Of a stretch of DNA of 64,000 bases, positions 31,655 to 62,896 are shown piece by piece. This DNA is from Sweltsa coloradensis. Lineage: Eukaryota > Arthropoda > Insecta > Plecoptera > Chloroperlidae. The notes beneath the pieces were generated by a model that saw only the letters and a program-made list of their open reading frames with translations, did not search any database and had not been told where the DNA came from. The translations under genes were made by a program, and so were the position numbers. The stretch covers positions 124,001 through 188,000 of the forward strand of contig JAMZAV010002036.1 of the NCBI GenBank assembly GCA_024449915.1. The letters run 5' to 3'. The first letter of the stretch is position 1. The number at the start of each line of letters is the position of its first letter.

Positions 31655-32816
31655 AGAGTGTAGGAAATGCGTTTTAGGTAAATTGCTGTTCGCTCGGCCG
31701 ACTGACACCACCGGTGTATGAAATTTTGTGCATATGTCACGAATGTGGAAATATAGGGCTCTGCAGTAACACATTTCCAAATTTTGTTTTAAAATAATTT
31801 ATAAAAAATAAATAAGTTTTCACGAGTATTGATTTTGTTAAAAACTCTAAAATTTACTATATTCGTGAATTTTATGGCTGATTGGATGAGCGAAGCGAAG
31901 ACTTCAATTTCACCGACCCCCCAAAAAATTTAGCTCGGGTGTTTTTTTGTTTTTTTTTTTTGTTTTTTTTTGTTTTTTGTTTGTTTTCGTCTGTTTGTTC
32001 GCTCTCTACCGGGCAAACGGCATATGCGATCTGCATGAAAATTTGACAGGACCTTAGAAATCTCTGAACTTAGACTTGCCACGTTTTTGGGTACAATCGA
32101 AGAAATATTCTCATGAATATCGTACTTTTATGATTTTTTTCGATTTTTTGGGCGATATTTTCGTGCCATTTGGGCAATTCTGACCAAACGGGTGAAGCTT
32201 AAAACGTTCATATTATACATGGACATTAAGGTTATGGTGATTTAGTACATTTTGAAAGAAAAAAGTTGAAAAGTTAGCCAGAATCTATAGAAATAAAGCT
32301 TTTAATATAATTTTTTTGATTTTTTGTGCGATATTTTCGTGCCATTTGGGTCAATTCTGACCAAACGGGTGGGGCTTCAACGTTCATATTATACATGGAC
32401 ATTAAGGTTATGGTGATGTAGTACCTTTTGAAAGAAAAAGTTGAAAAAGTTAGCCAGAATCCATAGAAATAAAGCTTTTAATATAAGTTTTTTACGGTAA
32501 ATAATACCAATTGACAAGAAAGAAAAGAAACTTGACAACATTCACCTACAATGCGTAGGCAGCAAAACAAAGCACTTGCAAAAGTAAAGATATCCCAAGC
32601 AAACTTAAAACTTTAAAAAGTCATCCATCAACGCGGCGGGACTTTAGCGTTTTCCTAGTTAAGACAAAATTTTGAAAATCTATGACTGCAGGGCTGTCCA
32701 TGTATGCTTTATTGGCAACTTTGCAAAGTTTCATATACCGGTACGTCGGATGCTTCCTGGCCGAGCGAATAGCTATTTGCTTAGGCCTCTGCCAAATGTG
32801 TCCCATTCCCTCTTTT
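31655..32816 (-). mobile_element. CTCGGCC foldback MITE, copy 6, split by a Helentron
   Basis: The outer parts (31655-31881 and 32659-32816) are one minus-strand copy of the MITE. They rejoin at GGCTGA/TTAAGACA exactly as in the uninterrupted copy at 17708-18072. The intervening 777 bp is the Helentron-like element described separately. Confidence 0.85.
31882..32658 (+). mobile_element. Non-autonomous Helentron-like element, copy b
   Basis: Starts TTGGATGAGCGAAGCGAAGA and ends GCGTTTTCCTAG. Comparison with the empty site at about 17933 shows insertion with no target duplication; because of shared Ts the cut is either A^T or T^T. Order of parts: GATGAGC start, AGCTCGGGTG, poly-T microsatellite, TACCGGGCAAACGGCATATG, two or more satellite units of about 180 bp containing GACCAAACGGGTGGGGCTTC, then CATCCATCAACGCGGCGGGA. 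The start word is repeated inverted just inside the 3' tail. Asymmetric inverted repeats, a microsatellite and satellite core are features of Helentron-associated elements. No Rep/helicase is encoded. Confidence 0.82.
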
Positions 32817-34477: not shown

Positions 34478-35900
34478 CAGTGGCGGATACAGAGGGGCGG
34501 TGGGGCGATCGCCCCCCCCCCCCCATGATGATTTAAAAATTAAAAATAAATGATTTTATTAATTTATTGTGCACGCACCAAATGCACTCTAAAAACCTGA
34601 TTTTCAACATTTTCGCCTGCGGCGCTATTTATTTAAAACTCCCAGTAAAAGTCAACTTTCCTTCATGTTGTCAGAAATAATCAGTTTGCCTCTGAAATGT
34701 GTCTGCATCAGAGTACTTCGATTTATTAAGTTGTCCTCCTATGTAAATCGCTTTTTTAACTGAATAGGATAGACGTTTAATAAATAAATAAATAAAATGC
34801 TGAATTGAAAATAAGCTATCAAACGTTTATAACTAGGAAAACGCTTAAGTCCCGCCGCGTTGATGGATGAGCTTTTTGAAGTTTTTAATTTGCGTGGGAT
34901 ATCTTTACTTTTGCAAGTGCTTTGTTTTGCTGCCTACGCATTGTAGGTGATTGTTGTCAAGTTTCTATTGTTTCTTGTCAATTGGTATTATTTACCGTAA
35001 AAAACTTATATAAAAAGCTTTCTTTCTATGGATTCTGGCTTACTTTTTCAACTTTTTATTTCAAAAGATACTTCATCACCATAACCTAAATGTCCATGTA
35101 TAATATGAACGTTGTAGCCCAACCCGTTTGGTCAGAATCGGCCCAAATGGCACGAAAATATCGCACAAAAAATAAAAAAAAACTTATATTAAAAGCTTTA
35201 TTTCTATGGATTCTGGCTAACTTTTTCAACTTTTTATTTCAAAAGATACTACATCACCATAACCTTAATGTACATGTGAAATATGAACGTTGTAGCCCCA
35301 CCCGTTTGGTCAGAATCGGCCCAAATGTCACGAAAATATCGCACTAAAAATCGAAAAAAAATCGTAAAAGTACGATATTCATTAGAAATATTTCTTCGAT
35401 TGTACCCAAAAACGTAGCAAGTCTAAGTTCAGAGATTTCGAAGGTCCTGTCAAATTTTCATCAAGATCGCATATGCCGTTTGCCCGGTAGAGAGCGAACA
35501 AACAGACAAAAATACAAAAAAAAAAAAAAAAAACACACGAGCTAAATTTTTTGGGGGGTCAGTGAAATTGAAGTCTTCGCTCGCTAAGCTCATCCAATAA
35601 TGTTGCAATGTAGGCCAATGCTGTAAATTGTAAGCTCGACATGACGACAAAACAAATTGGTGCACCACAAACTACATTGTTTCGGTATTGCATTCCGCCA
35701 CCATTTTTTTCTAAAACGCACCAAATGCACTCTAAAAACCTGATTTTCAAACTTTTCGCCTGCGGCGCAATTAATGGGGGGCTGGGGGGCGCCCCCCATA
35801 CCCCCCGTGCGTCCGCGCTTAGTCCCTTTCCCACGACTGTACAGTGTACATCCACACGCAAATCGCCCCCCCCCATGATTATGTCCTAGATCCGCCACTG
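34478..35900. mobile_element. hAT-like element (CAGTGGCGGAT) with nested Helentron
   Basis: The ends CAGTGGCGGAT and ATCCGCCACTG are inverted, and the flanks are a perfect 8-bp duplication ACAATCGG (34470-34477 and 35901-35908). The subterminal parts carry G/C runs and CATGATGATT/AATCATG-like words. The block GCACCAAATGCACTCTAAAA with CGCCTGCGGCGC occurs on both sides of the nested element in the same orientation (34576 and 35718), showing internal duplication. No transposase frame. A Helentron-like copy (34833-35597) sits inside. Confidence 0.9.
34833..35597 (-). mobile_element. Non-autonomous Helentron-like element, copy c (nested)
   Basis: Minus-strand copy. The plus strand begins CTAGGAAAACGCTTAAGTCC and ends GCTCATCCAA. 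It contains two satellite units with CCCGTTTGGTCAGAATCGGC, an A/T microsatellite at about 35517-35532 and the AGCTAAATTTTTTGGGGGG block. It lies wholly inside the hAT-like element at 34478-35900, so it inserted later. Confidence 0.85.
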
Positions 35901-36132
35901 ACAATCGGTAGGCTGGCCTATGCTTCAATTTGATCCAGAATAAACTTCTGCATTCTGCATTAAAAACAGATTTTTCTGAGCTCACCAGCGCTAAATTGAG
36001 CAATAATCTGGCTCACAGTGAATTAAATAATGTTACTTTCACAGTGAAATCAATTCGTACTTATAGAATAGGTCAATCAATAATGAACGGCATAGGTAAG
36101 TAGACCTGCCTCAGAACGTACGACAATATTTA

Positions 36133-36138
36133 TACAAG
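36133..36138. repeat. Target-site duplication, left (TACAAG)
   Basis: Six bases identical to 47013-47018. The giant palindromic element begins at the next base (AGTAGAGTGTAC) and ends (GTACACTCTACT) just before the right copy. Confidence 0.9.
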
Positions 36139-36345
36139 AGTAGAGTGTACGCCACTGGGCAGTCAAAGGGATGCCGCCTAATTAATTATGCAAATTTTTA
36201 ATTACCCCTAATTAATTAATCACGCAAAATTTTTTAATTATGCAAATTTTAATTATGCAAATTTTTAATTAATCATATATTTTTTAATTATGAATTTTTA
36301 ATTTTTTAATTATGCAAATTTTTAATTGATCATATTTTAATTTTA
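36139..36345. promoter_or_regulatory. Left terminal region with four ATGCAAAT octamers
   Basis: After the conserved 40-bp end the DNA is almost pure A/T apart from the octamers, with ATGCAAAT at 36188-36195, 36240-36247, 36255-36262 and 36312-36319. Their spacing is irregular. The octamer is the classic Oct-1/POU site. In adenovirus terminal repeats an Oct-1 site helps start protein-primed replication. A replication role here is an inference from position and repetition. Confidence 0.6.
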
Positions 36346-36620
36346 AAGATGGCGGATGCTACACTAGAGTGTGACTGCTTTAACCTAACTTTTTTATGTA
36401 TTCAAGATGGCGGACACTACACAAAAGGGTGACCATTTTAACCTAACTTAACCTAACATGATGACGTCATGCAAACCTGTCAAGACTTGTCAAGTTTGGT
36501 TGCAAACATGACAAGACTTGTCAAGACAGGCATTGAGTGACGCCACCATACACAGACTAGTCAGGACATGCATCGAGTGTGTGAAGATGAAGGACTGGGA
36601 ATCATGGTATACCTAGGGTG
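36346..36620. promoter_or_regulatory. Left subterminal motifs: AAGATGGCGG pair and GACAAGACTTGTC dyads
   Basis: AAGATGGCGGATGCTACAC (near 36347) and AAGATGGCGGACACTACAC (near 36404) each lead into TTTAACCTAACTT. A TGATGACGTCAT word follows near 36458, and then paired CAAGACTTGTCAAG dyads from about 36480 to 36520. The same set is present inverted at about 46560-46790. YY1-like identity of the AAGATGGC core is established knowledge; function here is unknown. Confidence 0.5.
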
Positions 36621-36716
36621 AATAAATTTAAAAAGTCAAGACTTATTCATGTGTATAACAAATCTTATTTATTTAACAAACACATTAGTACATGAAACCA
36701 ATTTTTACATTACATA

Positions 36717-37430
36717 TCATGCAGTCGCATTAATCAACTCCACTTCACTGTAGATAAATTCAGCACCAAGTTCGTACACAATTCTTTCCATATTCACAGT
36801 AATGTACTTCTCCTCATGACCTAAACGTTCAGTATAGGTCTTCACAAAGTCATGTAGGCTAACACACGTAGAACCTGACATTTTTGCTACTAATGCCAGT
36901 TCATCATATTTGTTTTTAATTCTCATAAGAAAATTAAAGTACCACTTGTTTATATCGCGATAGCTCAGTTCAAGATCACTTAACATATGCGAAACACTTT
37001 GAGAATATTTTACTAGATTACGGCACGACACTTCGCCAAGGTATACACGACCATTTGTGGATTTAAGTCCCAACACAATAGTACCGTGATGATTATACAC
37101 AAACAAGGTAAAAGAACCAACCTCCGTTTCTGGTACACTGGCTGCATCTTCACCCATGTTGAAGACGTAATCATTGAGTAGTTCCATTTCACGAACAAGT
37201 TGACTCCATTCGTGAAGATTGAGCCTGAGTCCTCTTCCTTTTGCACATTGGATTTGTACATATGGTTTGAAGCAGTCTTGCATATGACACCCGACCACCA
37301 GCATTTTCGTACATGATCCATTTAAAAAGAAAACACTTTTACAAAGAACAAGTTCGTACTTTTTAAGATGGTCCACATAAGCAGGCGTAGGCTCAGCAAC
37401 AGTGGTAGTGAAGTCTGCTTGAAAATTCAT
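36717..37430 (-). CDS. PC4-like ssDNA-binding protein, left-arm copy
   Basis: Intronless, 237 residues, oriented toward the left end of the element. I start at the ATG at 37428-37430 because its context CACCATGA is a good initiation context; the frame stays open 35 codons further upstream but without another ATG. Residues about 31-90 resemble the PC4 (p15) C-terminal domain, a dimeric ssDNA-binding fold of transcription coactivators. Residues 64-78 read KGRGLRLNLHEWSQL, matching the family's conserved KGxxL...WxxL helix region. Residues 105-150 may be a second, weaker repeat of the fold. The C-terminal third is unassigned. The product is identical to the right-arm copy. A poly(A) signal lies at 36668-36673. 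Expected role: binding single strands during replication, or transcription of the element. The PC4 call is by motif only. Confidence 0.72.
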   Translation of the reverse strand: MNFQADFTTTVAEPTPAYVDHLKKYELVLCKSVFFLNGSCTKMLVVGCHMQDCFKPYVQIQCAKGRGLRLNLHEWSQLVREMELLNDYVFNMGEDAASVPETEVGSFTLFVYNHHGTIVLGLKSTNGRVYLGEVSCRNLVKYSQSVSHMLSDLELSYRDINKWYFNFLMRIKNKYDELALVAKMSGSTCVSLHDFVKTYTERLGHEEKYITVNMERIVYELGAEFIYSEVELINATA

Positions 37431-37439
37431 GGTGATGCA

Positions 37440-37960
37440 GTTGAAGACACGGACCAGTATGCGACTGTCCTCGACAAATCTCAGACGCTGACTGACTGAA
37501 GCTCTAGACTCCTCGCGCTCTTGAAGGAGCCCCAAGCGGCAGCTTCGTGAAGCTCCGCCCCTTTCTCTTCCATTCGTGTTGAAACTTGCAAGTCATGACG
37601 TCATACAGACATGTCCAGACTTGCACACATACAGACCTGACCAAACATGATGCTTTACAATATAATGAAGGATATTAAGTAATGTACAATAAATAAATAA
37701 AAAAATCAAGACAATTTTTAAATACACGTCCTTCCTCGACGAAGACTGGACTGAGACTGAAGATTTTGAGCTCGTCTTGTCTAAGACCTACCCCCACCAT
37801 GACGTTGTCGGTGCGCAGAGATAGATGCGCAGTGGTTTTATTTTTATTTTTATTTTGGGAATCTTCGGAAATCTTCGTGAAGCTCCGTTGCGATTCGTGT
37901 ATCTTCGGGAATCTTCGGAAATCTTCGTGAAGCTCCGCCCTTTATCTTCCCATCACCAAC
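37440..37960 (-). promoter_or_regulatory. Upstream region of the left PC4-like gene
   Basis: Contains a perfect CRE TGACGTCA (37596-37603), a GC box (plus strand CCGCCCC, 37555-37561), and repeated CTTCGTGAAGCTCCG cassettes near 37546, 37874 and 37926 with CTTCGGAAATCTTCG between the last two. The AAATACACGTCC and TATAATGAAGGATATT stretches also recur in the right arm. Motifs are seen; promoter activity is inferred. Confidence 0.5.
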
Positions 37961-38732
37961 TTTGTGAAACTGTCTGGAGTTGCAATCTTAGATTACATGA
38001 TTTCAATTTACTTTTAAAAAATTACTTCTTCAGTCCTATTATTTCCACTGCAGACAGACGTCTAGACATCCCAATTATTTTTTAAACTTGAATAGTCTAT
38101 TCATGAAGAAGTGAATGACATCCAATTATAGGAATTCAAAAGCCTATTCACAAGGAGTGCATTGTATGTTGCAAAACGAATGGCTTACAACAATTTTCAT
38201 GTTCAGATTTGTTGTTCAGACTTACACCTATTATTAAAACTTTTAGATTTTAAAAGAGCGCCGTCATCCAATGTTGGTACAGTATAAGTATTGTATAGAA
38301 GATTTGTTCACATGACCCTGACCTGATTTTCGTCCAAACCTGATGGTTTGTCGGAAAGTGCCCTTGGGCAAAGTAAAGCACATTGTTCAAACAATATTGG
38401 CGGTTTACGACCCCCCAGGCATAGCATCATATTTCAAATAGCTTGGCGGTTGATGCCCTGAGGACAAATCTCAGAGGAAGGGAGGGCATTGTGACCCTAA
38501 AGCCAAAAGTTTTATCAAGTTATTAAACTCTAGAAGAAAAGGTGTAAACTTTTCCTTGCAAAGTTTCAAGTTCTTACTATGCTGTAGTGAAAATGTGTGA
38601 AAATAAGTTTTCACATTACAAACTTTTAAAGTTGTTATAATACCATGTAAAGAAAATGTGTGCAAAAAAAGATAGTTTTTCTGCATGTGTACGTATTTCA
38701 TTATATTATTGTTGGCAATTCAGAAAAATGTT

Positions 38733-40170
38733 AAAGTATTTTACAAAGTTCTTATACTCTGTAAAGAAAATGTGAAAAACTGACACAGCACTATACATAC
38801 ATACACAACACAGCTTCTCACACAACAATTCACCACATCACACATAGTACACACTGTAAACTACTTCCCACATTACACCATAAAGTACGCAACGTACACT
38901 ACTTCTCCTCACACTACACTGCACTATACATACTTACACTATACTTCTCCTCACACTACATCATACAAAGTACACACTGTACACAACACTACACACATAA
39001 CCTTCCCATGCAAAGTAAAAATTCTTACTACTTTGTAAATAAAACGAGTGCAAATAACTTGTGTTTTACATGTATACATATTTCTTTGCTGCAAGAAAGT
39101 AAAGTGTTAAAAGTTTTACACACTCATTAAGAAAATGCATGAAAATAATATCTTTTACTTGCAAAGTTTTCAAAGTTCTTACTTCTTTGGACGCATTTCA
39201 TTATATTATTGTTGGCAATTAAGGAAAATGTTAAAGTATTTTACAAAGTTCTTATACTCTGTAAAGAAAATGTGAAAAACTGACACAGCACTATACATAC
39301 ATACACAACACAGCTTCTCACACAACAATTCACCACATCACACATAGTACACACTGTAAACTACTTCCCACACTACACCATAAAGTACGCACCGTACACT
39401 ACTTCTCCTCACACTACACTGCACTATACATACTTACACTATACTTCTCCTCACACTACACCATACAAAGTACACACTGTACACAACACTACACACATAA
39501 CCTTTCCATGCAAAGTAAAAATTCTTACTACTCTGTTAATAAAATGAGTGCAAATAACTTGTGTTTTACATGTATACATATTTCTTTGTTGCAATAAATT
39601 AAAGTGTTAAAAGTTTTACACACTCATTGAGAAAATGCATGAAAATAATATCTTTTACTTGCAAAGTTTTCAAAGTTCTTACTTCTTTGGACGTATTTCA
39701 TTATATTATTGTTGTCAATTAAGGAAAATGTTAAAGTATTTTACAAAGTTCTTATACTCTGTAAAGAAAATGTGAAAAACTGACACAGCACTATACATAC
39801 ATACACAACACAGCTTCTCACACAACAATTCACCACATCACACATAGTACACACTGTAAACTACTTCCCACACTACACCATAAAGTACGCACCGTACACT
39901 ACTTCTCCTCACACTACACTGCACTATACATACTTACACTATACTTCTCCTCACACTACACCATACAAAGTACACACTGTACACAACACTACACACATAA
40001 CCTTTCCATGCAAAGTAAAAATTCTTACTACTCTGTTAATAAAATGAGTGCAAATAACTTGTGTTAAAAGTTTTTTTTTTTTAAGTTTTACACTCATTGA
40101 GAAAATGCATGAAAATAATATCTTTTACTTGCAAAGTTTTCAAAGTTCTTACTTCTTTGGAAAGAAAATG
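38733..40170. repeat. Left-arm 500-bp tandem repeats
   Basis: The word TGTGAAAAACTGACACAGCA begins at 38771, 39271 and 39771, giving an exact 500-bp period. Within each unit a CACAC/ACACT-rich stretch of about 230 bp alternates with AT-rich monomers of about 60 bp carrying TTCTTATACTCTGTAAAG-type words. The array is inverted in the right arm. Confidence 0.92.
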
Positions 40171-40336
40171 TGTGCAAATAAGATAAGAAACTTACAAACT
40201 TTTTAGTTCTACTAGTTTTCTCACTATTCAGTAAGAAAATGCGTGCAAGAAAGTTAAGTTTTCCTTTAAAAACTAACCAGTACTAGTTTACAAACTTACA
40301 AGTTCAGATAGTCTGGAAAGAAATTGCGTGTACATA

Positions 40337-42763
40337 AAATTACTTTTGCTAACTAAACAAGTTCTTATACTCTGTAAACAAAACGTGTGAAAATAAGTTA
40401 ACACTCTCACAAGATCTTATTCTCTGTAGTAAAAATGCGTGACAATAAGTATACAAACTTGCAGTTATTTAAAAGTATTAAGAACATGTGGTTTGTTAGG
40501 TAAAAGTTATCTGATGTGTAGGTACATTTATTCTTCACAAAGTATAAGAACTTGTAGGTTTGTAAGTTAAGGTTTTCTGATGTGTACATTTATTCTTTAC
40601 AAAGTATTAGAACTTGTTAGTTTGTAAGTTTGTAAACTAATTTTCACACAATTCATTTAAAAAGTATTAAGAACCTGAAGTTTTGTTAGATAAAAGTTAT
40701 CTGATGTATACATTTATTCTTTACAAAGTATAATAACTTGTAAGTTATCTAATGTGTACATTTATTCTTTACAAAGTATAAGAACTTGTTAGTTTGTAAG
40801 TTTGTAAACGAATTTTCACAACCTAAAGGTTTGATGAGAAAAAAGTTGTCTTATGTACACACAGTATCATTACAGAGTATATAAACTTGTAGGTTTGTTA
40901 AGTTAAAGTTATCTGATGTGTACATTTTTTCTGATGTGTACATTTTTTCTTTACGGAGTATAAGAACTTGTAGGTTTGTTAAGTAAAAGTTATATTATGT
41001 GCACACAGTATCTTTACAGAGTAGAAGAACTTGTAGGTTTGTTAGGTAAAAGTTATCTGATGTGTACATTTAATCTTCACAAAGTATAAGAACTTGTTAG
41101 TTTGTAAGTTTGTAAACTAATTTTCACACAATTTATTTACGAAGTATTAAGAACCTAAAGGTTTGATGAGAAAAAGTTGTCTTATGTACACACAGTATCA
41201 TTACAGAGTATATAAACTTGTAGGTTTGTTAAGTTAAAGTTATCTGATGTGTACATTTTTTCTGATGTGTACATTTTTTTCTTTACAAAGGTATAAGAAC
41301 ATGTTAGTTTGTAAGTTTGCAAACTAATTTTCAAACAATTACTTTACAAAGTGTTAAGAACCAGTAGGTTTGTTAACAAAAGTTGTATTTTGTGCACGCA
41401 ATAACTTTACAGAGTATATAAACTTGTAGGTTTGTTAAGTTAAAGTTATCTATGTGTACATTTTTTTCTTTACAAAGGTATAAGAACATGTTAGTTTGTA
41501 AGTTTGCAAACTAATTTTCATACAATTTATTTACAAAGTGTTAAGAACCTGTAGGTTTGTTAAGAAAAGTTGTATTTTGTGCACGCAATAACTTTACAGA
41601 GTAAAATAACTTGTAGGTTTGTTAAGTAAAAGTTATCTGATGTGTACATTTTTTCTTTACGGAGTATAAGAACTTGTTAGTTTGTAAGTTTGTAAACTAA
41701 TTTTCACACAATTTATTTACGAAGTATTAAGAACCTAAAGGTTTGATGAGAAAAAGTTGTCTTATGTACACACAGTATCATTACAGAGTATATAAACTTG
41801 TAGGTTTGTTAAGTTAAAGTTATCTGATGTGTACATTTTTTCTGATGTGTACATTTTTTTCTTTACAAAGGTATAAGAACATGTTAGTTTGTAAGTTTGC
41901 AAACTAATTTTCATACAATTTATTTACAAAGTGTTAAGAACCTGTAGGTTTGTTAAGAAAAAGTTGTCTTATGTACACACAGTATCATTACAGAGTATAT
42001 AAACTTGTAGGTTTGTTAAGTTAAAGTTATCTGATGTGTACATTTTTTCTGATGTGTACATTTTTTCTTTACAAAGGTATAAGAACATGTTAGTTTGTAA
42101 GTTTGCAAACTAATTTTCATACAATTTATTTACAAAGTGTTAAGAACCTGTAGGTTTGTTAAGAAAAGTTGTATTTTGTGCACGCAATAACTTTACAGAG
42201 TAAAAGAACTTGTAGGTTTGTTAAGTAAAAGTTATCTGATGTGTACATTTTTTCTTTACAAAGTATAAGAACTTGTTAGATTCTTAGTTTGTAAACTAAT
42301 TTTCACATAATTTATTTACAAAGTATTAAGAACTTGTAGGTTTGTTAGGTCGATAAGTAAAAGTTATCAGATGTGTGCATTTTTTCTAATGTGTACATTT
42401 TTTTTTCTTTACAAAAGAATAAGAACTTGTTAGTTTCTTAGTTTGTAAACTAATTGTCACACAATTTATTTACAAAGTATTAAGAACTGTTTGTTGAGAA
42501 AAAATTGTCTTATGTACACACAGTATCATAACAGAGTATATGAACTTGTAGGTTTGTTAAGTAAAAGCTATATTATGTGCACACAGTATCTTTACAGAGT
42601 AAGAGAACATGTAGGTTTGTTAGGTAAAAGTTATCTAATGTATACATTCATTCTTTACAAAGTATTAGAACTTGTTAGTTTGTAAGTTTGTAAACGTAAT
42701 TTTCACACAATTTATTTACGAAGTATTAAGAACCTAAAGGTTTGATGAGAAAAAGTTGTCTTA
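40337..42763 (+). repeat. One-directional tandem-repeat core of the giant palindrome
   Basis: Monomers of about 60 bp (consensus parts TTTACAGAGTATAAGAACTTG, GTAGGTTTGTTAAG, AAAGTTATCTGATGTGTACA) form higher-order blocks near 190-205 bp. One marker word recurs at about 41303, 41489, 41882 and 42086. From about 40455 onward all monomers point the same way as those of the right arm, so this is the only non-palindromic part of the element. Confidence 0.85.
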
Positions 42764-42929
42764 TATACACGCAATTTCTTTCCAGACAATCTGAACTTGT
42801 AAGTTTGTAAACTAGTACTGGTTAGTTTCTAAAGGAAAACTTAACTTTCTTGCACGCATTTCTTACTGAATAGTGAGAAAACTAGTAGAACTAAAAAGTT
42901 TGTACGTTTCTTATCTTATTTGCACACAT

Positions 42930-44410
42930 TTTCTTTCCAAAGAAGTAAGAACTTTGAAAACTTTGCAAGTAAAAGATATTATTTTCATGCATTTTCTCAA
43001 TGAGTGTAAAACTTTTAACACTTTAATTTATTGCAACAAAGAAATATGTATACATGTAAAACACAAGTTATTTGCACTCATTTTATTAACAGAGTAGTAA
43101 GAATTTTTACTTTGCATGGAAAGGTTATGTGTGTAGTGTTGTGTACAGTGTGTACTTTGTATGGTGTAGTGTGAGGAGAAGTATAGTGTAAGTATGTATA
43201 GTGCAGTGTAGTGTGAGGAGAAGTAGTGTACGGTGCGTACTTTATGGTGTAGTGTGGGAAGTAGTTTACAGTGTGTACTATGTGTGATGTGGTGAATTGT
43301 TGTGTGAGAAGCTGTGTTGTGTATGTATGTATAGTGCTGTGTCAGTTTTTCACATTTTCTTTACAGAGTATAAGAACTTTGTAAAATACTTTAACATTTT
43401 CCTTAATTGACAACAATAATATAATGAAATACGTCCAAAGAAGTAAGAACTTTGAAAACTTTGCAAGTAAAAGATATTATTTTCATGCATTTTCTCAATG
43501 AGTGTGTAAAACTTTTAACACTTTAATTTATTGCAACAAAGAAATATGTATACATGTAAAACACAAGTTATTTGCACTCATTTTATTAACAGAGTAGTAA
43601 GAATTTTTACTTTGCATGGAAAGGTTATGTGTGTAGTGTTGTGTACAGTGTGTACTTTGTATGGTGTAGTGTGAGGAGAAGTATAGTGTAAGTATGTATA
43701 GTGCAGTGAAGTGTGTGGAGAAATAGTGTACGGTGCGAACTTTATGGTGTAGTGTGGGAAGTAGTTACAGTGTGTACTATGTGTGATGTGGTGAATTGTT
43801 GTGTGAGAAGCTGTGTTGTGTATGTATGTATAGTGCTGTGACAGTTTTTCACATTTTCTTTACAGAGTATAAGAACTTTGTAAAATACTTTAACATTTTC
43901 CTTAATTGCCAACAATAATATAATGAAATGCGTCCAAAGAAGTAAGAACTTTGAAAACTTTGCAAGTAAAAGATATTATTTTCATGCATTTTCTTAATGA
44001 GTGTGTAAAACTTTTAACACTTTACTTTCTTGCAGCAAAGAAATATGTATACATGTAAAACACAAGTTATTTGCACTCGTTTTATTTACAAAGTAGTAAG
44101 AATTTTTACTTTGCATGGAAAGGTTATGTGTGTAGTGTTGTGTACAGTGTGTACTTTGTATGTTGTAGTGTGAGGAGAAGTATAGTGTAAGTATGTATAG
44201 TGCAGTGAAGTGTGAGGAGAAGTAGTGTACGTTGCGTACTTTATGGTGTAATGTGGGAAGTAGTTTACAGTGTGTACTATGTGTGATGTGGTGAATTGTT
44301 GTGTGAGAAGCTGTGTTGTGTATGTATGTATAGTGCTGTGTCAGTTTTTCACATTTTCTTTACAGAGTATAAGAACTTTGTAAAATACTTTAACATTTTT
44401 CTGAATTGCC
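42930..44410. repeat. Right-arm 500-bp tandem repeats
   Basis: Mirror image of 38733-40170. The word CACATTTTCTTTACAGAGTA begins at 43351, 43850 and 44350, a 499-500 bp period. Units differ from each other by scattered substitutions. Confidence 0.92.
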
Positions 44411-45159
44411 AACAATAATATAATGAAATACGTACACATGCAGAAAAAACTATCTTTTTTTGCACACATTTCTTTACATGGTATTATAACAACTTTAAAA
44501 GTTTGTAATGTGAAAACTTATTTTCACACATTTTCACTACAGCATAGTAAGAACTTGAAACTTTGCAAGGAAAAGTTCACACCTTTTCTTCTAGAGTTTA
44601 ATAACTTGATAAAACTTTTGGCTTTTAGGGTCACAATGCCCTCCCTTCCTCTGAGATTTGTCCTCAGGGCATCAACCGCCAAGCTATTTGAAATATGATG
44701 CTATGCCTGGGGTCGTAAACCGCCAATATTTTTGAACAATGTGCTTTACTTTGCCCAAGGGCACTTTCCGACAAACCAACAGGTTTGGACGAAAATCAGG
44801 TCAGGGTCATGTGAACAAAGCTTCTATACAATACTTATACTGTACCAACATTGAATGACGGCGCTCCATTTTTTAAAATCTAAAAGTTTTAATAATAGGT
44901 GTAAGTCTGAACAACAAATCTGAACATGAAAATTGTTGTACGCCATTCGTTTTGCAACATACAATGCACTCCTTGTGAATAGGCTTTTGAATTCCTATAA
45001 TTGGATGTCATTCACTTCTTCATGAATAGACTATTCAAGTTTAAAAAATAATTGGGATGTCTAGACGTCTGTCTGCAGTGGAAATAATAGGACTGAAGAA
45101 GTAATTTTTTAAAAGTAAATTGAAATCATGTAATCTTAGATTGCAACTCCAGACAGTTT

Positions 45160-45697
45160 TACAAAGTTGGTGATGGGAAGATAAAGGGGCGGAGCTTCAC
45201 GAAGATTTCCGAAGAGTTCGCGAAGATACACGAATCGCAAAAATTTAACCACTGCGCAGCTAACTCTGCAAAAAATAAAAATATAAAAATAAACCACTGC
45301 GCAGCTTACTCTGCGCACCGACAACGTCATGGTGGGGGTAGGTCTTAGACAAGACGAGCTCAAAATCTTCAGTCTCAGTCCAGTCTTCGTCGAGGAAGGA
45401 CGTGTATTTAAAAATTGTCTTGATTTTTTTTTTTTTTATTGTACATTACTTAATATCCTTCATTATATTGTAAAGCATCATGTTTGGTCAGGTCTGTATG
45501 TGTGCAAGTCTGGACATGTCTGTATGACGTCATGACTTGCAAGTTTCAACACGAATGGAAGAGAAAGGGGCGGAGCTTCACGAAGCTGCCGCTTGGGGCT
45601 CCTTCAAGAGCGCGAGGAGTCTAGAGCTTCAGTCAGTCAGCGTCTGAGATTTGTCGAGGACAGTCGCATACTGGTCCGTGTCTTCAACTGCATCACC
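45160..45697 (+). promoter_or_regulatory. Upstream region of the right PC4-like gene
   Basis: GGGGCGGAGCTTCACGAAG occurs twice (from 45186 and from 45567). A perfect CRE TGACGTCA lies at 45525-45532, and a GGACATGTCT palindrome-like half-site at 45512-45521. CCACTGCGCAGCTNACTCTGC is duplicated near 45250 and 45295. The arm differs here from the left arm by rearrangement, unlike the coding sequence. Confidence 0.5.
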
Positions 45698-46411
45698 ATG
45701 AATTTTCAAGCAGACTTCACTACCACTGTTGCTGAGCCTACGCCTGCTTATGTGGACCATCTCAAAAAGTACGAACTTGTTCTTTGTAAAAGTGTTTTCT
45801 TTTTAAATGGATCATGTACGAAAATGCTGGTGGTCGGGTGTCATATGCAAGACTGCTTCAAACCATATGTACAAATCCAATGTGCAAAAGGAAGAGGACT
45901 CAGGCTCAATCTTCACGAATGGAGTCAACTTGTTCGTGAAATGGAACTACTCAATGATTACGTCTTCAACATGGGTGAAGATGCAGCCAGTGTACCAGAA
46001 ACGGAGGTTGGTTCTTTTACCTTGTTTGTGTATAATCATCACGGTACTATTGTGTTGGGACTTAAATCCACAAATGGTCGTGTATACCTTGGCGAAGTGT
46101 CGTGCCGTAATCTAGTAAAATATTCTCAAAGTGTTTCGCATATGTTAAGTGATCTTGAACTGAGCTATCGCGATATAAACAAGTGGTACTTTAATTTTCT
46201 TATGAGAATTAAAAACAAATATGATGAACTGGCATTAGTAGCAAAAATGTCAGGTTCTACGTGTGTTAGCCTACATGACTTTGTGAAGACCTATACTGAA
46301 CGTTTAGGTCATGAGGAGAAGTACATTACTGTGAATATGGAAAGAATTGTGTACGAACTTGGTGCTGAATTTATCTACAGTGAAGTGGAGTTGATTAATG
46401 CGACTGCATGA
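45698..46411 (+). CDS. PC4-like ssDNA-binding protein, right-arm copy
   Basis: Mirror copy of the left-arm gene: intronless, 237 residues, oriented toward the right end. Start ATG at 45698-45700 in context CACCATGA; stop TGA at 46409-46411; poly(A) signal AATAAA at 46457-46462. The same PC4-type motif (KGRGLRLNLHEWSQL, residues 64-78) lies in the region of residues 31-90. The parts I compared by eye (about 350 bp of the 3' half) are identical in DNA, and the full translation is identical. The non-coding parts of the arms carry indels and a rearrangement. This suggests recent conversion between arms or strong constraint. No transmembrane or signal segment is seen. Nuclear action is inferred from the PC4-like fold. 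Confidence 0.72.
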   Translation: MNFQADFTTTVAEPTPAYVDHLKKYELVLCKSVFFLNGSCTKMLVVGCHMQDCFKPYVQIQCAKGRGLRLNLHEWSQLVREMELLNDYVFNMGEDAASVPETEVGSFTLFVYNHHGTIVLGLKSTNGRVYLGEVSCRNLVKYSQSVSHMLSDLELSYRDINKWYFNFLMRIKNKYDELALVAKMSGSTCVSLHDFVKTYTERLGHEEKYITVNMERIVYELGAEFIYSEVELINATA

Positions 46412-46789
46412 TATGTAATGTAAAAATTGTGGTTTCATGTACTAATGTGTTTGTTAAATAAATAAGATTTGTTATACACATGAATAAGTCTTGACTTTTT
46501 AAATTTATTCACCCTAGGTATACCATGATTCCCAGTCCTTCATCTTCACACACTCGATGCATGTCCTGACTAGTCTGTGTATGGTGGCGTCACTCAATGC
46601 CTGTCTTGACAAGTCTTGTCATGTTTGCAACCAAACTTGACAAGTCTTGACAGGTTTGCATGACGTCATCATGTTAGGTTAAGTTAGGTTTAAAATGGTC
46701 ACCCTCTTGTGTAGTGTCCGCCATCTTGAAAAAGTTAGTTTAAAGCAGTCACACTCTAGTGTAGCATCCGCCATCTTTAAAATTAAAAT

Positions 46790-47012
46790 ATGATCAATTA
46801 AAAATTTGCATAATTAAAAAATTAAAAATTCACAATTAAAAAATATGAATAATTAAAATATGAATAATTAAAAATATGATTAATTAAAAATTTGCATAAT
46901 TAAAATTTGCATAATTAAAAAATTTGCGCGATTAATTAATTAGGGGTAATTAAAAATTTGCATAATTAATTAGGCGGCATCCCTTTGACTGCCCAGTGGC
47001 GTACACTCTACT
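46790..47012. promoter_or_regulatory. Right terminal region with four octamers
   Basis: ATTTGCAT (inverse of ATGCAAAT) at 46804-46811, 46890-46897, 46905-46912 and 46956-46963, in DNA that is otherwise almost all A/T. Four octamers are kept in each end although the two ends differ by several indels. Confidence 0.6.
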
Positions 47013-47018
47013 TACAAG
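47013..47018. repeat. Target-site duplication, right (TACAAG)
   Basis: Exact copy of 36133-36138. Confidence 0.9.
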
Positions 47019-48270: not shown

Positions 48271-49841
48271 CAGGGTTGAGAAAAACACGGGTTTTTCTGA
48301 GAAAAAAAAAACAACCCGGGCGGGTTTTTTCAGGGTTTTTGGGGTTTTTGGCGGTTTTTTGGGGGCTTTGGAAATTTCACGCTAAATATGTGTAAAATGT
48401 CTATTTTGCACTTTTGCCCTATTATTGGTTAATTTTTCAAAGTAGGCCTATGCCTACACACAAAAATATTAGGTAGGCCTAGTAGGAAATAAAATAAGTT
48501 TTGTTTTAATTAGCAGTGACCTAGTGATGCATTTTTTTTAGAGGTTAAGGCATCTCGGTTAAAGCGCTTAAATTTGAATTTGCATAATGAATAGCCTAAG
48601 ATGTTCATTGTTCAGTTTCAATTTCATTATCATTATCTTGAAATATTTCATTAGTCCTATGTAGGCCTACTAGAGAGAGAAATTTTTTATTTTTCAAGGA
48701 AAACAAAACTCTGTTCCACAAATACAACGGCCACAAGGACACAGAATAAAAACAACATTGATTAGCAACAATAAAAAAAAAGTTTTAAATTTAAATACAA
48801 ATACAAGAAATGAGTACCAATTAGCAATTCTTAGACCTATGCATTGATTATTATTTGGAATTTGTGTAGTGTACTTACACTTATACTTTGACTTTGTTTC
48901 AGTTTATTGGATGAGCGAAGCGAAGACTTCAATTTCACTGACCCCCAAAAAATTTAGCTCGGGTGTTTTTTTTTTGTTTTTTTTGTTTTTTTGTTTTTTT
49001 GGTTTGTTTTTTTGTCTGTTTGTTAACTCTCTACCAGGCAAACGGCATATCCGATCTTGATGAAAAATTTGACAGGACCTTCGAAATCTCTGAACTTAGA
49101 GGTGTATTTTTTTGGGTACAATCGAAGAAATATTTCTCATGAATATCGTACTTTTACGATTTTTTTTCGATTTTTAGTGCGATATTTTTCGTGACATTTG
49201 GGTTAATTCTGACCAAACGGGTGGGGCTACAACGTTCATATTATACATGGACATTAAGGTTATGGTGATGTAGTACCTTTTGAAAGAAAAAGTTGAAAAA
49301 GTTAGCCAGAATCCATAGAAATAAAGCTTTTAATATAAGGTTTTTGATTTTTTGTGCGATATTTTCGTGCACATTTGGGCCAATTCTGACCAAACTGGTG
49401 GGGCGACAACGTTTCATATTATACATGGACATTAAGGTTATGGTGATGTAGTACCTTTTAAAAGAAAAAGTTTAAATAGTTAGCCAAAATCTATAGAAAT
49501 AAAGCTTTTAATATAAGTTTTTTACGGAAAATAATACCAATTGACAGGTAACAAAAGAAACTTGACAACAATCAGCTACAATGCGTATTGCGTAGGCAGC
49601 AAAACAAAGAACTTGCAAAAGTAAAGATATCCCATGCAAACTAAAACATTTTTAAAAGCTCATCCATCAACGCGGCGGGACTTTAGCGTTTTCCTAGTTG
49701 TAATAAATAGTTAATATGAATCTATTAGTGTGTTTTACTCAAAAACCCCAAAAACCCACTTTGTACTGGTTTTTTTCAAGTGGGTTTTTGGTTGAAAAAC
49801 CCGCCGGGTTTTTTCGGTCTGGGCAAAATTTCTCAACCCTG
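48271..49841. mobile_element. hAT-like element (CAGGGTTGAGAAA) with nested Helentron
   Basis: The ends CAGGGTTGAGAAA and TTTCTCAACCCTG are inverted, and the flanks are a perfect 8-bp duplication CACTGAAG (48263-48270 and 49842-49849). Subterminal AACCCGGGCGGGTTTTTT and its counterpart AAAACCCGCCGGGTTTTTT are also inverted. The interior has no transposase frame. A Helentron-like element (48907-49697) lies inside. Without it the hAT is about 780 bp. Confidence 0.9.
48907..49697 (+). mobile_element. Non-autonomous Helentron-like element, copy d (nested)
   Basis: TTGGATGAGCGAAGCGAAGA start, T-rich microsatellite near 48966-49015, two satellite units with GACCAAACGGGTGGGGCTAC, CATCCATCAACGCGGCGGGA near the end, and final CTAG followed by T. 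It lies inside the hAT-like element at 48271-49841. Confidence 0.87.
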
Positions 49842-56083: not shown

Positions 56084-56752
56084 CCGTCTGTTTGTTCGCT
56101 CGATTCCGGGCAAACGGCATACGCGATCTTGATGAAAATTTGACCGGACCTTCGTTTTCTCTGAACTTAGAGGTGTATTGTTTTTGGGTACAATCGAAGA
56201 AATATTTCTCATAAATATCGTACTTTTACGATTTTTTTCGATTTTTAGTGCGATATTTTCGTGACATTTGGGCGCATTCTGACCAAACTGGTGGGGCTAG
56301 AACGTTCATATTTCACATGGACATTAAGATTATGGTGATGTAGTACCTTTTGAAAGAAAAAGTTGAAAAAGTTAGCTAGAATCTATAGAAATAAAGGTTT
56401 TAATATTAGTTTTTCAATTTTTAGTGCGATATTTTCGTCACATTTGGGCCGATTCTGACCAAACGGGTAGGGCTACAACGTTCAGATTTCACATGGACAT
56501 TAAGGTTATGGTGATGTAGTACCTTTTGAAAGAAAAAGTTGAAAAAATTAGTCAGAATCTACAGAAATAAAGGTTTTAATATGAGTTTTTTGAAGTTTAT
56601 AATACCAATTAACAAATAACAATAGAAACTTGACAACAATCACCTCCACAATGCATTCAAAAAGCACTTGCAAAGGAAAAGTGCAAACAAACGCACAAAA
56701 CGCAAAAAAAACGCTCATCCATCAACGCGGCGGGACTTTAGCGTTTTCCTAG
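55959..56752 (+). mobile_element. Non-autonomous Helentron-like element, copy e
   Basis: TTGGATGAGCGAGCGAGCGT start, a 47-bp T run (56037-56083), TTCCGGGCAAACGGCATACG, two satellite units, CATCCATCAACGCGGCGGGA, and final CTAG followed by T. It belongs to a GAGCGTAGCGAG subfamily with copy f. Confidence 0.87.
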
Positions 56753-57044: not shown

Positions 57045-57844
57045 TTGGATGAGCGTAGCGAGCGTAGCGAGTGGAGCGAAGACTTCAATTTCACTGACCC
57101 CCCAAAATATTTAGCTCGGGTGTTTTTTTTTTTTTTTGTTTTTTGTTTTTTTTTTTTTGTTTTTCCGTCTGTTTGTTCGCTCGATTCCGGGCAAACGGCA
57201 TATGCGATCTTGATGAAAATTGTAAGGGACCTTCGTTTTCTCTGAACTTAGAGGTGTATTGTTTTTGGGTACAATCGAAAAAATATTTCTCATGAATATC
57301 GTACTTTTACGATTTTTTTCGATTTTTAGTGCGATATTTTCGTGACATTTGGTCCGATTCTGACCAAACGGGTGGGGCTACAACGTTCATATTTCACATG
57401 TACATTAAGGTTATGGTAATGTAGTACCTTTTGAAAGAAAAAGTTGAAAAAGTTAGCCAGAATTCATAGAAATAAAGGTTTTAATATAAGTTTTTCAATT
57501 TTTAGAGCGATATTTTCGTCCCATTCGGGCCGATTCTGACCAAACGGGTGGGGCTAAAACGTTCAGATTTCACATGGACATTAAGGTTATGGTAATGTAG
57601 TACCTTTTGAAAGAAAAAGTTGAGAAAGTTAGCCAGAATCCACAGAAATAAAGGTTTTAATATGAGTTTATTGAGGTTTATAATACCAATTAACACGTAA
57701 CAATAGAAACTCTGTTCAACAATCACCTACAATGCATTCAAAAAGCACTTGCAAAGGAAAAGTGCAAAAAAACGCAAAAAACGCAAACAAAAAATTACAA
57801 AAACGCTCATCCATCAACGCGGCGGGACTTTAGCGTTTTCCTAG
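57045..57844 (+). mobile_element. Non-autonomous Helentron-like element, copy f
   Basis: Same subfamily as copy e, 292 bp downstream and in the same orientation. Interrupted T run near 57122-57164, two satellite units, CATCCATCAACGCGGCGGGA and terminal CTAG. Confidence 0.87.
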
Positions 57845-62049: not shown

Positions 62050-62526
62050 AAGGGAAAAGGGGAAACCCGGTACCGGCACGTAGCCTACTCCTTTCGAAAA
62101 GTACCAAGGGGACCAACTGCTTCACGTCCCATTCAAAAGGACGGTGTAACCTTGACAGTCATATAGGTTCCTCCACTGACCCGGACTGCCGAGCAGACGC
62201 CAATTGCGATATATATATATATACACACAGATAATTGCGTCGGGGCCTACAAGGTTGGCTTGGTCGCTTTGATTTAAATTTTAAAGTCCTCCACTGGAAA
62301 ACACCTACACTGGAAATCAGTTATATAACTGAGTGGATAGACTCTAAATACAATTTATTTATTTAAGGAGAACGAAGCCGTCACACAAAGCTTTCGAACC
62401 CTAGTCTGCTCTAGCCAGCGGTATACGCGTGTTTCAGGGCCGAGCGGTTACCCACTCAACCCCTGACCACGCACGATGTTGCTTAACTTCGGTGTTCGAG
62501 TGAGAACCGGTTAAACGACCAAAGGG
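62050..62526 (-). mobile_element. 5S rRNA-derived SINE, copy B, split by a SINE tail
   Basis: On the minus strand the head matches 5S rRNA clearly: AACCGGTTCTCAC, ACACCGAAGTTAAGCA and GAGTGGGTAACCGCTC in the right order and spacing. This contains the 5S internal promoter region. The body continues as in copy A. Between GAGCAGACG and AGGAGAACG, about 160 bp are inserted (62203-62365): a short AT/AC repeat plus the tail of SINE family 1 in the opposite orientation. Confidence 0.8.
62203..62365 (+). mobile_element. SINE family 1 tail inserted in the 5S SINE
   Basis: AATTGCGTCGGGGCCTACAA, GGCTTGGTCGCTTTGATTTA, GGAAATCAGTTATATAACTG and ATTTATT. Copy A at 58345 lacks it. Confidence 0.75.
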
Positions 62527-62896
62527 AATATGCATATCTTTCCTTAACAACCTCCGTCAATAAGTGGTCCAGAATGTCTGTGAATTTCCCTATATAAATT
62601 TTAAAGTCCTCCACTGGAAATCAGTTATATAACTGAGTGGGTAGACTCTAAATACAATTTATTTATTTAAGGAGAACGAAGCCGTCACACAAAGCTTTCG
62701 AACCCTAGTCTGCTCTAGCCAGCGGTATACGCGCGTTTCAGGGCCGAGCGGTTACCCACTCAACCCCTGACCACGCACGATGTTGCTTAACTTCGGTGTT
62801 CGAGTGAGAACCGGTTAAACGACCAAAGGGAATATGCATATCTTTCCTTAACAACCTCCGTCAATAAGTGGTCCAGAATGTCTGTGAATTTCCCTA
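62276..62896. repeat. Near-perfect tandem duplication, ~304-320 bp
   Basis: The block from TTTAAAGTCCTCCACTGG (62280) to GTCTGTGAATTTCCCTA (about 62592) recurs from about 62600 to 62896. The duplicate contains the SINE tail, the GGAGAACGAAGCCGTCACAC body and the 5S head. The first copy has about 16 extra bases (a repeat of ACACTGGAAA-type words). Other differences are very few, so it is recent. Confidence 0.92.

What the first reader, a model, noticed from the sequence alone, without database searches (positions are those of the whole stretch)
36139..47012. A 10.9 kb palindromic mobile element with gene-bearing arms and a 6-bp target duplication
Seen directly: exact inverted ends (AGTAGAGTGTACGCCACTGG), arms of 4.2 kb each, a 2.4 kb directional core and a perfect TACAAG duplication. 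Most known foldback elements have short non-coding arms. Here each arm holds an intact gene and an ordered set of terminal, promoter and satellite modules. That architecture would suit replication through a hairpin-ended or dimeric intermediate followed by integrase-type insertion. This is my best candidate for an undescribed system.
Basis: partly seen in the sequence, partly recalled or inferred. Interest (0 to 1): 0.95.

Follow-up and report, generated by a model that had tools for sequence, protein, structure and literature searches.

The report
Palindromic gene-bearing Polinton satellite
This is a real mobile DNA element, a shortened mirror-image relative of the virus-like Polinton transposons that has lost the copying and insertion enzymes but keeps, in each arm, a gene that probably makes a single-stranded-DNA-binding protein.

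Summary
Arms of 4,274 and 4,333 bp (96.1% identical) flank a 2,267-bp tandem-repeat core, with exact ends and a TACAAG duplication. Another contig holds the empty site with TACAAG once.

The end was found at 40 scored places in this 1.45-Gb genome. A 15.3-kb relative with the same ends, C931, carries Polinton genes and the arm gene once, at its right end. So the window element is a non-autonomous Polinton/Maverick derivative. Arm 1-1588 is Polinton right end; beyond it lies Polinton left end. The joint is shared by all 12 arms aligned.

The arm gene is intact in both arms. Weak models resemble PUR/PC4 single-stranded-DNA-binding proteins and insect-adintovirus MOSUB; 129 related places were tallied in this genome.

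Arms evolve together: 44 sites separate two element lineages in both arms, none separates left from right.

Most likely: a helper-dependent satellite, copied by protein-primed replication as a self-complementary linear molecule and inserted by a full Polinton's integrase. The replication step is inferred.

The parts
36133..36138 (.). left copy of the 6-bp target duplication TACAAG
   Evidence: single copy in the empty site on C11155
36139..40412 (+). left arm (4,274 bp)
   Evidence: self-comparison, 96.1% identical to the right arm
36139..36158 (+). exact terminal inverted end AGTAGAGTGTACGCCACTGG, left
   Evidence: 40 places scored in the genome with the 122-bp end, the window's two included
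36182..36327 (+). A+T-rich short tandem repeats just inside the left end (mirror copy 46796-46969)
36139..37726 (+). part of the arm derived from the RIGHT end of the full Polinton (arm 1-1588, 88% identical to C931 right end)
36717..37430 (-). arm gene, left copy: 237-aa PUR/PC4-like (MOSUB-like) protein including stop codon; CACCATG start context; AATAAA after the stop
37727..38891 (+). part of the arm derived from the LEFT end of the full Polinton, with gaps (arm 1588-2753 against C931 left end 425-2480); the joint is shared by all 12 arms aligned
38691..40065 (+). 500-bp tandem array, 2.8 copies, left arm
40413..42679 (+). core: one-directional array of degenerate ~62/187/207-bp repeats, no ORF of 80 aa or more listed
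42680..47012 (-). right arm (4,333 bp)
42936..44433 (-). 499-bp tandem array, 3.0 copies, right arm
45698..46411 (+). arm gene, right copy: same 237-aa protein (1 synonymous difference in the reading frame)
46993..47012 (-). exact terminal inverted end, right
47013..47018 (.). right copy of the target duplication TACAAG

Best explanation
The element is a non-autonomous, palindromic derivative of an arthropod-type Polinton/Maverick (adintovirus-like element), in effect a helper-dependent satellite. SHOWN: it shares its ends and 6-bp target duplication with a full-length element of this genome (C931) that has PolB and rve-integrase matches, weaker ATPase and adenain-like protease matches and a capsid-type protein; its arms are a joined piece of that Polinton's right end (with its terminal gene) and left end; the same joint is in all gene-bearing copies examined; it inserted at a known empty site; the gene is open in most copies and its differences lean to silent ones. 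STRONGLY INDICATED: the two arms are made alike again before insertion, more than once in the family's history, and then diverge separately in the chromosome. INFERRED: the element is copied in trans by a full Polinton's protein-primed polymerase starting at the AGT-type ends; the displaced strand folds back on its own arms, which makes the arms identical and keeps the palindrome; the product is inserted by the helper's integrase. The arm gene encodes a PUR/PC4-like (MOSUB-like) protein that probably binds the single-stranded DNA exposed in this replication; having it in the arm doubles its dose and ties it to the replication unit.
Against: No mobilisation, replication intermediate or expression was observed. 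C4768 shows arms that are NOT alike in the gene: at arm 600-1100 its left arm is window-type at 69 of 69 informative sites and its right arm C931-type at 66 of 69, so homogenisation is not obligatory each cycle. Patches of lower identity inside otherwise near-identical arms (C119, C2036, C1468) mean that some exchange between copies, perhaps in the chromosome, also happens. The protein models are weak (mean pLDDT 45 and 47); Foldseek had no PDB match at E <= 0.001 (best 0.0036, Pur-alpha), the MOSUB match has 21% identity and rmsd 10.7, and no sequence search matched PC4, PUR or MOSUB. The selection test was run on four of the 14 pairs computed: p 0.022 for one palindrome pair, 0.088 for the other (C119_L/C52_L), 0.0002 and 0.0016 against C931; pairs with few changes give dN/dS from 0 to 2.1. 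C931 itself looks broken: PolB runs through three frames; C3750 is more decayed.
Confidence: 0.85

Rival explanations
1. The arms are kept alike by ordinary gene conversion between the two arms after insertion, as in chromosomal palindromes, not by replication of a self-complementary intermediate.
For: Patchy identity: long stretches at 100% beside patches at 72-94% within the same arms. Long inverted repeats in chromosomes are known to convert (recalled).
Against: Frequent conversion after insertion should give many element-private changes carried by both arms; there are 13 against 218 carried by one arm, and 25 against 290 with eight elements (13 of the 25 are in C4768). The old copy C3044 has outer arms 89.9% or 93.5% alike with only 2 shared private changes.
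Confidence: 0.2
2. It is simply a Polinton with very long terminal repeats that lost its middle by deletion; the palindrome has no role in replication.
For: Larger relatives C1651 (25,983 bp, repeats of about 1.5 kb at 98.7%) and C529 (repeats 89.4% alike) already carry the gene in both terminal repeats and an integrase match inside. Concerted ends are expected of any protein-primed linear genome.
Against: The arms are mosaics of right and left ends, so a single internal deletion does not make them; gene-less palindromes exist as well (C16867, C556). This rival differs from the best explanation only in how much weight the palindrome carries.
Confidence: 0.35
3. A foldback-type (FB/Galileo-like) cut-and-paste transposon moved by its own transposase family.
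For: Shape: long, internally repetitive inverted arms.
Against: 6-bp duplications, Polinton-type ends, and a full relative with PolB and rve matches; the ORFs of 80 aa or more listed in the element include no transposase candidate beyond the arm gene.
Confidence: 0.02
4. Assembly artefact (mirror-image contig).
For: Mirror repeats are a known assembly failure (recalled).
Against: Arms differ at 66 positions with 26 gap openings, host flanks differ, the target duplication is perfect, an empty site exists, and seven further gene-bearing palindromes of this family were examined on other contigs.
Confidence: 0.01

Closest known systems
Polinton/Maverick elements (self-synthesising transposons; polintoviruses)
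   Same: 6-bp target duplications, AGT-type ends, terminal sequence shared with a full copy here that has PolB, rve integrase, weak ATPase and protease matches and a capsid-type protein. PMC8097293 (passages read) reports 6-bp duplications and (AGT)2 or (AG)3 ends for vertebrate Mavericks.
   Different: The window element has none of those enzymes; its inverted repeats are 4.3 kb, against 46-1,447 bp in the intact vertebrate elements of PMC8097293; it carries one terminal gene twice.
Adintoviruses, insect-associated, with the MOSUB gene
   Same: The arm protein's model best matches MOSUB of Bos-associated insect adintovirus in BFVD (E 6.2e-5) and, at rank 4, a protein of Drosophila-associated adintovirus 2 (E 0.006).
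   Different: Only 21% and 16% identity; the word MOSUB does not occur in the main texts of PMC11071296 and PMC8363768, and the passages shown do not mention a gene doubled in terminal repeats.
Adenovirus defective genomes with inverted end duplications and panhandle repair (recalled; one search did not turn up a paper that I could cite for it)
   Same: Palindromic, helper-dependent genomes of a protein-primed replicating virus; ends corrected through self-annealing.
   Different: Here the palindromes are inserted in a host genome, form diverged lineages and keep a gene under some constraint.
Foldback and Galileo elements
   Same: Long, internally repetitive inverted arms (PMC3573991, abstract start in search listing).
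   Different: Different relatives and enzyme class; duplication length of those families is recalled.

Membership tests
Polinton/Maverick (as a non-autonomous derivative) | 6-bp target-site duplication | tested here: met
   TACAAG at the window element with an empty site; 11 of 14 elements flush and perfect
Polinton/Maverick (as a non-autonomous derivative) | Terminal sequence shared with full elements that encode the machinery | tested here: met
   C931 and C3750 ends 82.6-88.7% identical to the arm terminus; C931 has Polinton gene matches; C3750 was not put through Pfam and has an integrase match with stops
Polinton/Maverick | End motif (AGT)2 or (AG)3 as in vertebrates | tested here: inconclusive
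   Ends read AGTAGAGT; C1651 and C1346 AGTAGGT; C3709 has one extra AGT. Similar, not identical to the motifs of PMC8097293
Polinton/Maverick (autonomous member) | Protein-primed PolB encoded in the element | tested here: not met
   No such ORF in 36139-47012; present, broken into three frames, in C931
Polinton/Maverick (autonomous member) | rve integrase encoded in the element | tested here: not met
   None in the window element (no C2036 row); 149 integrase matches elsewhere in the genome
Adintovirus | PolB with OTU-like domain and hexon in the element | tested here: not met
   Absent from the window element; the OTU-like domain was not tested in the full relatives
MOSUB-like / PUR-PC4 single-stranded-DNA-binding proteins (arm gene) | PUR/PC4 fold | tested here: inconclusive
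MOSUB-like / PUR-PC4 single-stranded-DNA-binding proteins (arm gene) | Binds single-stranded DNA | not testable with these tools
   needs a binding assay
Foldback (FB/Galileo) | Own transposase class and longer duplications (recalled) | tested here: not met
   6-bp duplications; C931 has an rve integrase match

The most novel reading that the evidence does not exclude
A lineage of fold-back satellites of Polintons: defective-interfering-like genomes that replicate as self-annealing palindromes on a helper Polinton, re-copying one arm from the other, and that retain a single-stranded-DNA-binding gene in both arms because the fold-back replication depends on it. Separate palindrome families with related genes (C1346 with other ends; possibly C230) would make this a recurrent life style.
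Probability: 0.45. Interest if true: 0.8.

Novelty: new variant of a known kind. Interest (0 to 1): 0.62.

Why it matters
Polintons are seen as a root of many animal DNA viruses, yet how they replicate is inferred largely from sequence (recalled). Gene-bearing palindromic derivatives, in which the two arms record rounds of copying, make protein-primed, fold-back replication of Polintons testable from genome data. They also suggest that Polintons have helper-dependent satellites that keep one viral gene, which points to that gene's importance in replication. In five literature searches I saw no description of gene-bearing palindromic Polintons (mostly titles and abstract starts, and only the listed part of each result).

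Tried and rejected
Pfam, NCBIfam, PHROGs and PDB sequence searches gave no credible family for the arm protein. Two searches of 5.8 billion proteins found only P0001 (70% identity) and P0002 (51%), both unnamed 'lgn' contigs. IMG/VR held no relative of the arm protein or of the C931 401-aa protein confirmed by tblastn. The phage collection had no similar DNA in 'near' mode. Foldseek against the PDB gave no match at E <= 0.001.

The 269-aa C931 protein had no convincing family match. Its reading as penton or minor capsid would rest on position and recalled sequence style, so I lean on it for nothing. The 401-aa protein is called capsid-type because of its F54H12.2-like relatives (only the 7,983 candidates sharing most words were scored and 120 listed) and recalled knowledge of that name. 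The meaning of the name MOSUB (after MoSub1) is recalled.

The HUH-like reading of an ORF in C1346 is weak (Replitron_HUH E 0.078, below cut-off).

I considered parvovirus-like hairpin ends: no terminal hairpin was folded or tested, and the 2.3-kb core argues against a simple head-to-head dimer for the window element. C1346, by contrast, has almost no core. The inverted matches of C2715 did not lead to its ends. The bacterial promoter scan was of no use here.

The paper search for MOSUB found nothing relevant. Kapitonov and Jurka 2006 and the adintovirus paper of Starrett et al. are not held, so a prior description there is not excluded.
Full report
OBSERVATION. The palindrome is real. The ends AGTAGAGTGTACGCCACTGG stand at 36139 (+) and 47012 (-), exact, with no other match in the window at up to 3 mismatches and none in 100 shuffles. 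The arms are 36139-40412 and 42680-47012 and agree at 96.1% over 4,355 columns; the core is 40413-42679. TACAAG flanks both ends. The left flank (301 bp) has one other long match among the 40 candidates scored of 1,190, on C11155 (97%). That contig reads left flank, one TACAAG, right flank: the right flank is 99.5% identical over 1,000 bp and the two matches overlap by exactly the six bases. This is an empty site, either the other haplotype or a duplicated locus.

ANATOMY. From each end inward: A+T-rich short repeats, the gene (transcribed outward, toward the end), an upstream non-coding region, and a ~500-bp tandem array of about 3 copies; between the arms lies a one-directional core of degenerate ~62/187/207-bp repeats. 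Both gene copies encode the same 237-aa protein from an ATG in a good context (CACCATG) with AATAAA after the stop (context and AATAAA were read in the left copy).

OTHER COPIES. The 122-bp end matches 40 scored places, the window's two included (177 candidates), in a genome of 1.449 Gb and 16,871 contigs. I read both ends of 14 elements: the window's, nine pairs, and four reached through the gene search. Eleven have a flush perfect 6-bp duplication; C3709 has TTCTAC with three extra bases AGT at its left end; C3044 and C1346 match at 5 of 6. The window family falls into three kinds among those examined: long elements with repeats of a few hundred bases and the gene once (C931 15,259 bp; C3750 14,988 bp); gene-bearing palindromes (C2036 = window, C1468, C52, C119, C1673, C3044, C4768, C3709); and palindromes without the gene (C16867 9,673 bp; C556 5,750 bp).

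WHAT THE FULL ELEMENTS ARE. C931 has Pfam matches to DNA_pol_B_2 in three consecutive frames (so this copy looks broken), to the rve integrase core (1.1e-6, slightly below the curated cut-off), to adenovirus endoprotease (0.0015, below cut-off), weak P-loop matches (RNA_helicase just above its cut-off; Pox_A32 and Adeno_IVa2 below theirs), and a clear BIR domain (9.5e-21). Its 401-aa protein has 2,285 relatives at E <= 0.001; among the 120 listed, those that carry a species name are insects, several called F54H12.2-like, a name that I recall as a usual label of Polinton major capsid proteins. C3750 was not put through Pfam; its integrase match holds stops and its arm gene is broken. With 6-bp duplications and AGT-type ends this is a Polinton/Maverick. 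The passages read in PMC8097293 give 6-bp duplications, (AGT)2 or (AG)3 end motifs, repeats of 46-1,447 bp and sizes of 12.7-24.6 kb for intact vertebrate Mavericks, and link the end repeats to the 'jumping-back' of protein-primed replication. The extra AGT of C3709 is what such slippage would leave; this is one case only.

ORIGIN OF THE PALINDROME. Arm 1-1588 matches the C931 right end continuously (88.2%). From 1588 on the matches switch to the C931 left end from its position 425. All 12 arms of six elements have this joint, and the matched arms of C4768 and C3709 run through it without a break. So the gene-bearing palindromes examined most simply share one origin, and differences among them arose in the palindromic lineage. 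Gene-less palindromes matched only left-end-like parts, so the simplest history is a left-end palindrome that later took up the right-end segment with the gene; the order is inferred.

THE ARMS EVOLVE TOGETHER. In 2,225 columns of the outer arms of six elements, 44 columns separate lineage A (C2036, C1468, C119) from lineage B (C52, C1673, C3044) in both arms of every element, while no column separates one arm from the other in all six, under any of 32 orientations. Changes private to one arm number 218; changes private to one element and present in both arms number 13. With eight elements the numbers are 290 and 25 over 1,965 columns, 13 of the 25 in C4768. Hence arms were made alike repeatedly during the spread of the family and mostly diverge on their own after insertion. 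Against a strict rule stands C4768: at arm 600-1100 its left arm is window-type at 69 of 69 informative sites and its right arm C931-type at 66 of 69; outside arm 100-300, 600-1100 and 1300-1400, its 100-bp windows agree at 96-100%. I read it as recombination with a full Polinton caught before homogenisation, or as a later exchange. Patchy identity in C119, C2036 and C1468 also points to exchanges. In the eight-element tree the two arms group together for C1468 (93), C119 (100), C3044 (81) and C3709 (100), and C2036 is compatible at the unrooted base; they do not for C52, C1673 and C4768.

THE GENE. Seven of eight gene-bearing palindromes keep at least one full reading frame; three of eight (C2036, C119, C4768) keep both. 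dN/dS is 0.38 between C2036 and C52 (10 silent, 15 replacement; p 0.022), 0.51 between C119 and C52 (p 0.088), and 0.38-0.43 against C931 (p 0.0002 and 0.0016 for the two pairs tested); other pairs, with few changes, range from 0 to 2.1. A protein search found 147 matches in this genome (564 candidates, 142 scored); I kept 129 as distinct places on 103 contigs. Among them are 21 divergent pairs within 30 kb (one, C2499, only 248 bp apart and hardly an element); an integrase match lies inside only two (C1651, C529), also when I look through all 149 rows, so 19 of 21 look non-autonomous within the limits of the two capped searches. On full elements the gene follows the integrase on the same strand: 27 pairs on 26 contigs, 21 of them 4.4-5.7 kb apart. 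In C1651 (25,983 bp, TSD GATGAG, integrase- and ATPase-like frames inside by eye and an integrase match) the gene lies in both 1.5-kb terminal repeats; C529 is similar, with repeats 89.4% alike, though its right end was not checked for a duplication.

MECHANISM. The element has no polymerase or integrase, so other elements, most likely full Polintons, must supply them. Ends, duplications and the empty site fit integrase insertion. Protein-primed copying of a linear molecule displaces a single strand; with 4.3-kb complementary arms this strand can fold into a stem, and synthesis on it would make the arms identical. That explains the concerted arms and the survival of the palindrome, and gives a reason to keep a single-stranded-DNA-binding gene. 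Panhandle repair of ends in adenoviruses is recalled knowledge; the one passage on a panhandle that I read concerns AAV (PMC11575299).

NOVELTY. Searches for Polinton with non-autonomous, nonautonomous, palindrom, foldback, inverted duplication, defective interfering or MITE and a broader Maverick search showed no description of gene-bearing palindromic Polintons. I saw mainly titles and abstract starts of the listed papers, plus passages of PMC6431247, PMC8097293, PMC4642659, PMC9341512, PMC11071296 and PMC8363768. Two key papers are not held and no Repbase search was possible. I rate it a new variant of a known kind.

Noticed in passing
L044-L046 (C1346:68099-79365): An 11.27-kb near-perfect palindrome with almost no core, other ends (AGTAGGTAGTGAGGCAC), a 5-of-6 target duplication, convergent copies of a related gene (57-59%) and divergent copies of an ORF with a weak HUH-endonuclease-like match (Pfam Replitron_HUH E 0.078). 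Three more convergent pairs of this gene group exist: C2715, C56, C1186.
   Followed up: partly
L040, L041 (C230:303196-313570): A divergent pair of distant arm-gene relatives (41% and 38% identity to the window protein) about 9 kb apart near a 238-bp inverted repeat 99% identical; ends not located.
   Followed up: partly
L042, L043, L047 (C1651:28453-54435): A 26-kb Polinton-like element with the arm gene inside both 1.5-kb terminal repeats and ATPase- and integrase-like frames.
   Followed up: partly
L028 4816-5550 (C931): The full Polinton encodes a protein with a BIR (inhibitor of apoptosis) domain, E 9.5e-21.
   Followed up: no
window 32129-32493, 34999-35361, 49164-49523, 56234-56590, 57315-57669: Five ~360-bp blocks, each two head-to-tail copies of a 176-178-bp unit; the block at 34999 is on the strand opposite to the other four, 90-92% identical to them.
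   Followed up: partly
window 62304-62896: A tandem pair of 304-bp units about 98% identical.
   Followed up: no
window 35845-35909 (query 8-72): A ~60-bp stretch 0.25 kb left of the insertion matches 38 further scored places in the genome, so the element lies next to an interspersed repeat.
   Followed up: no
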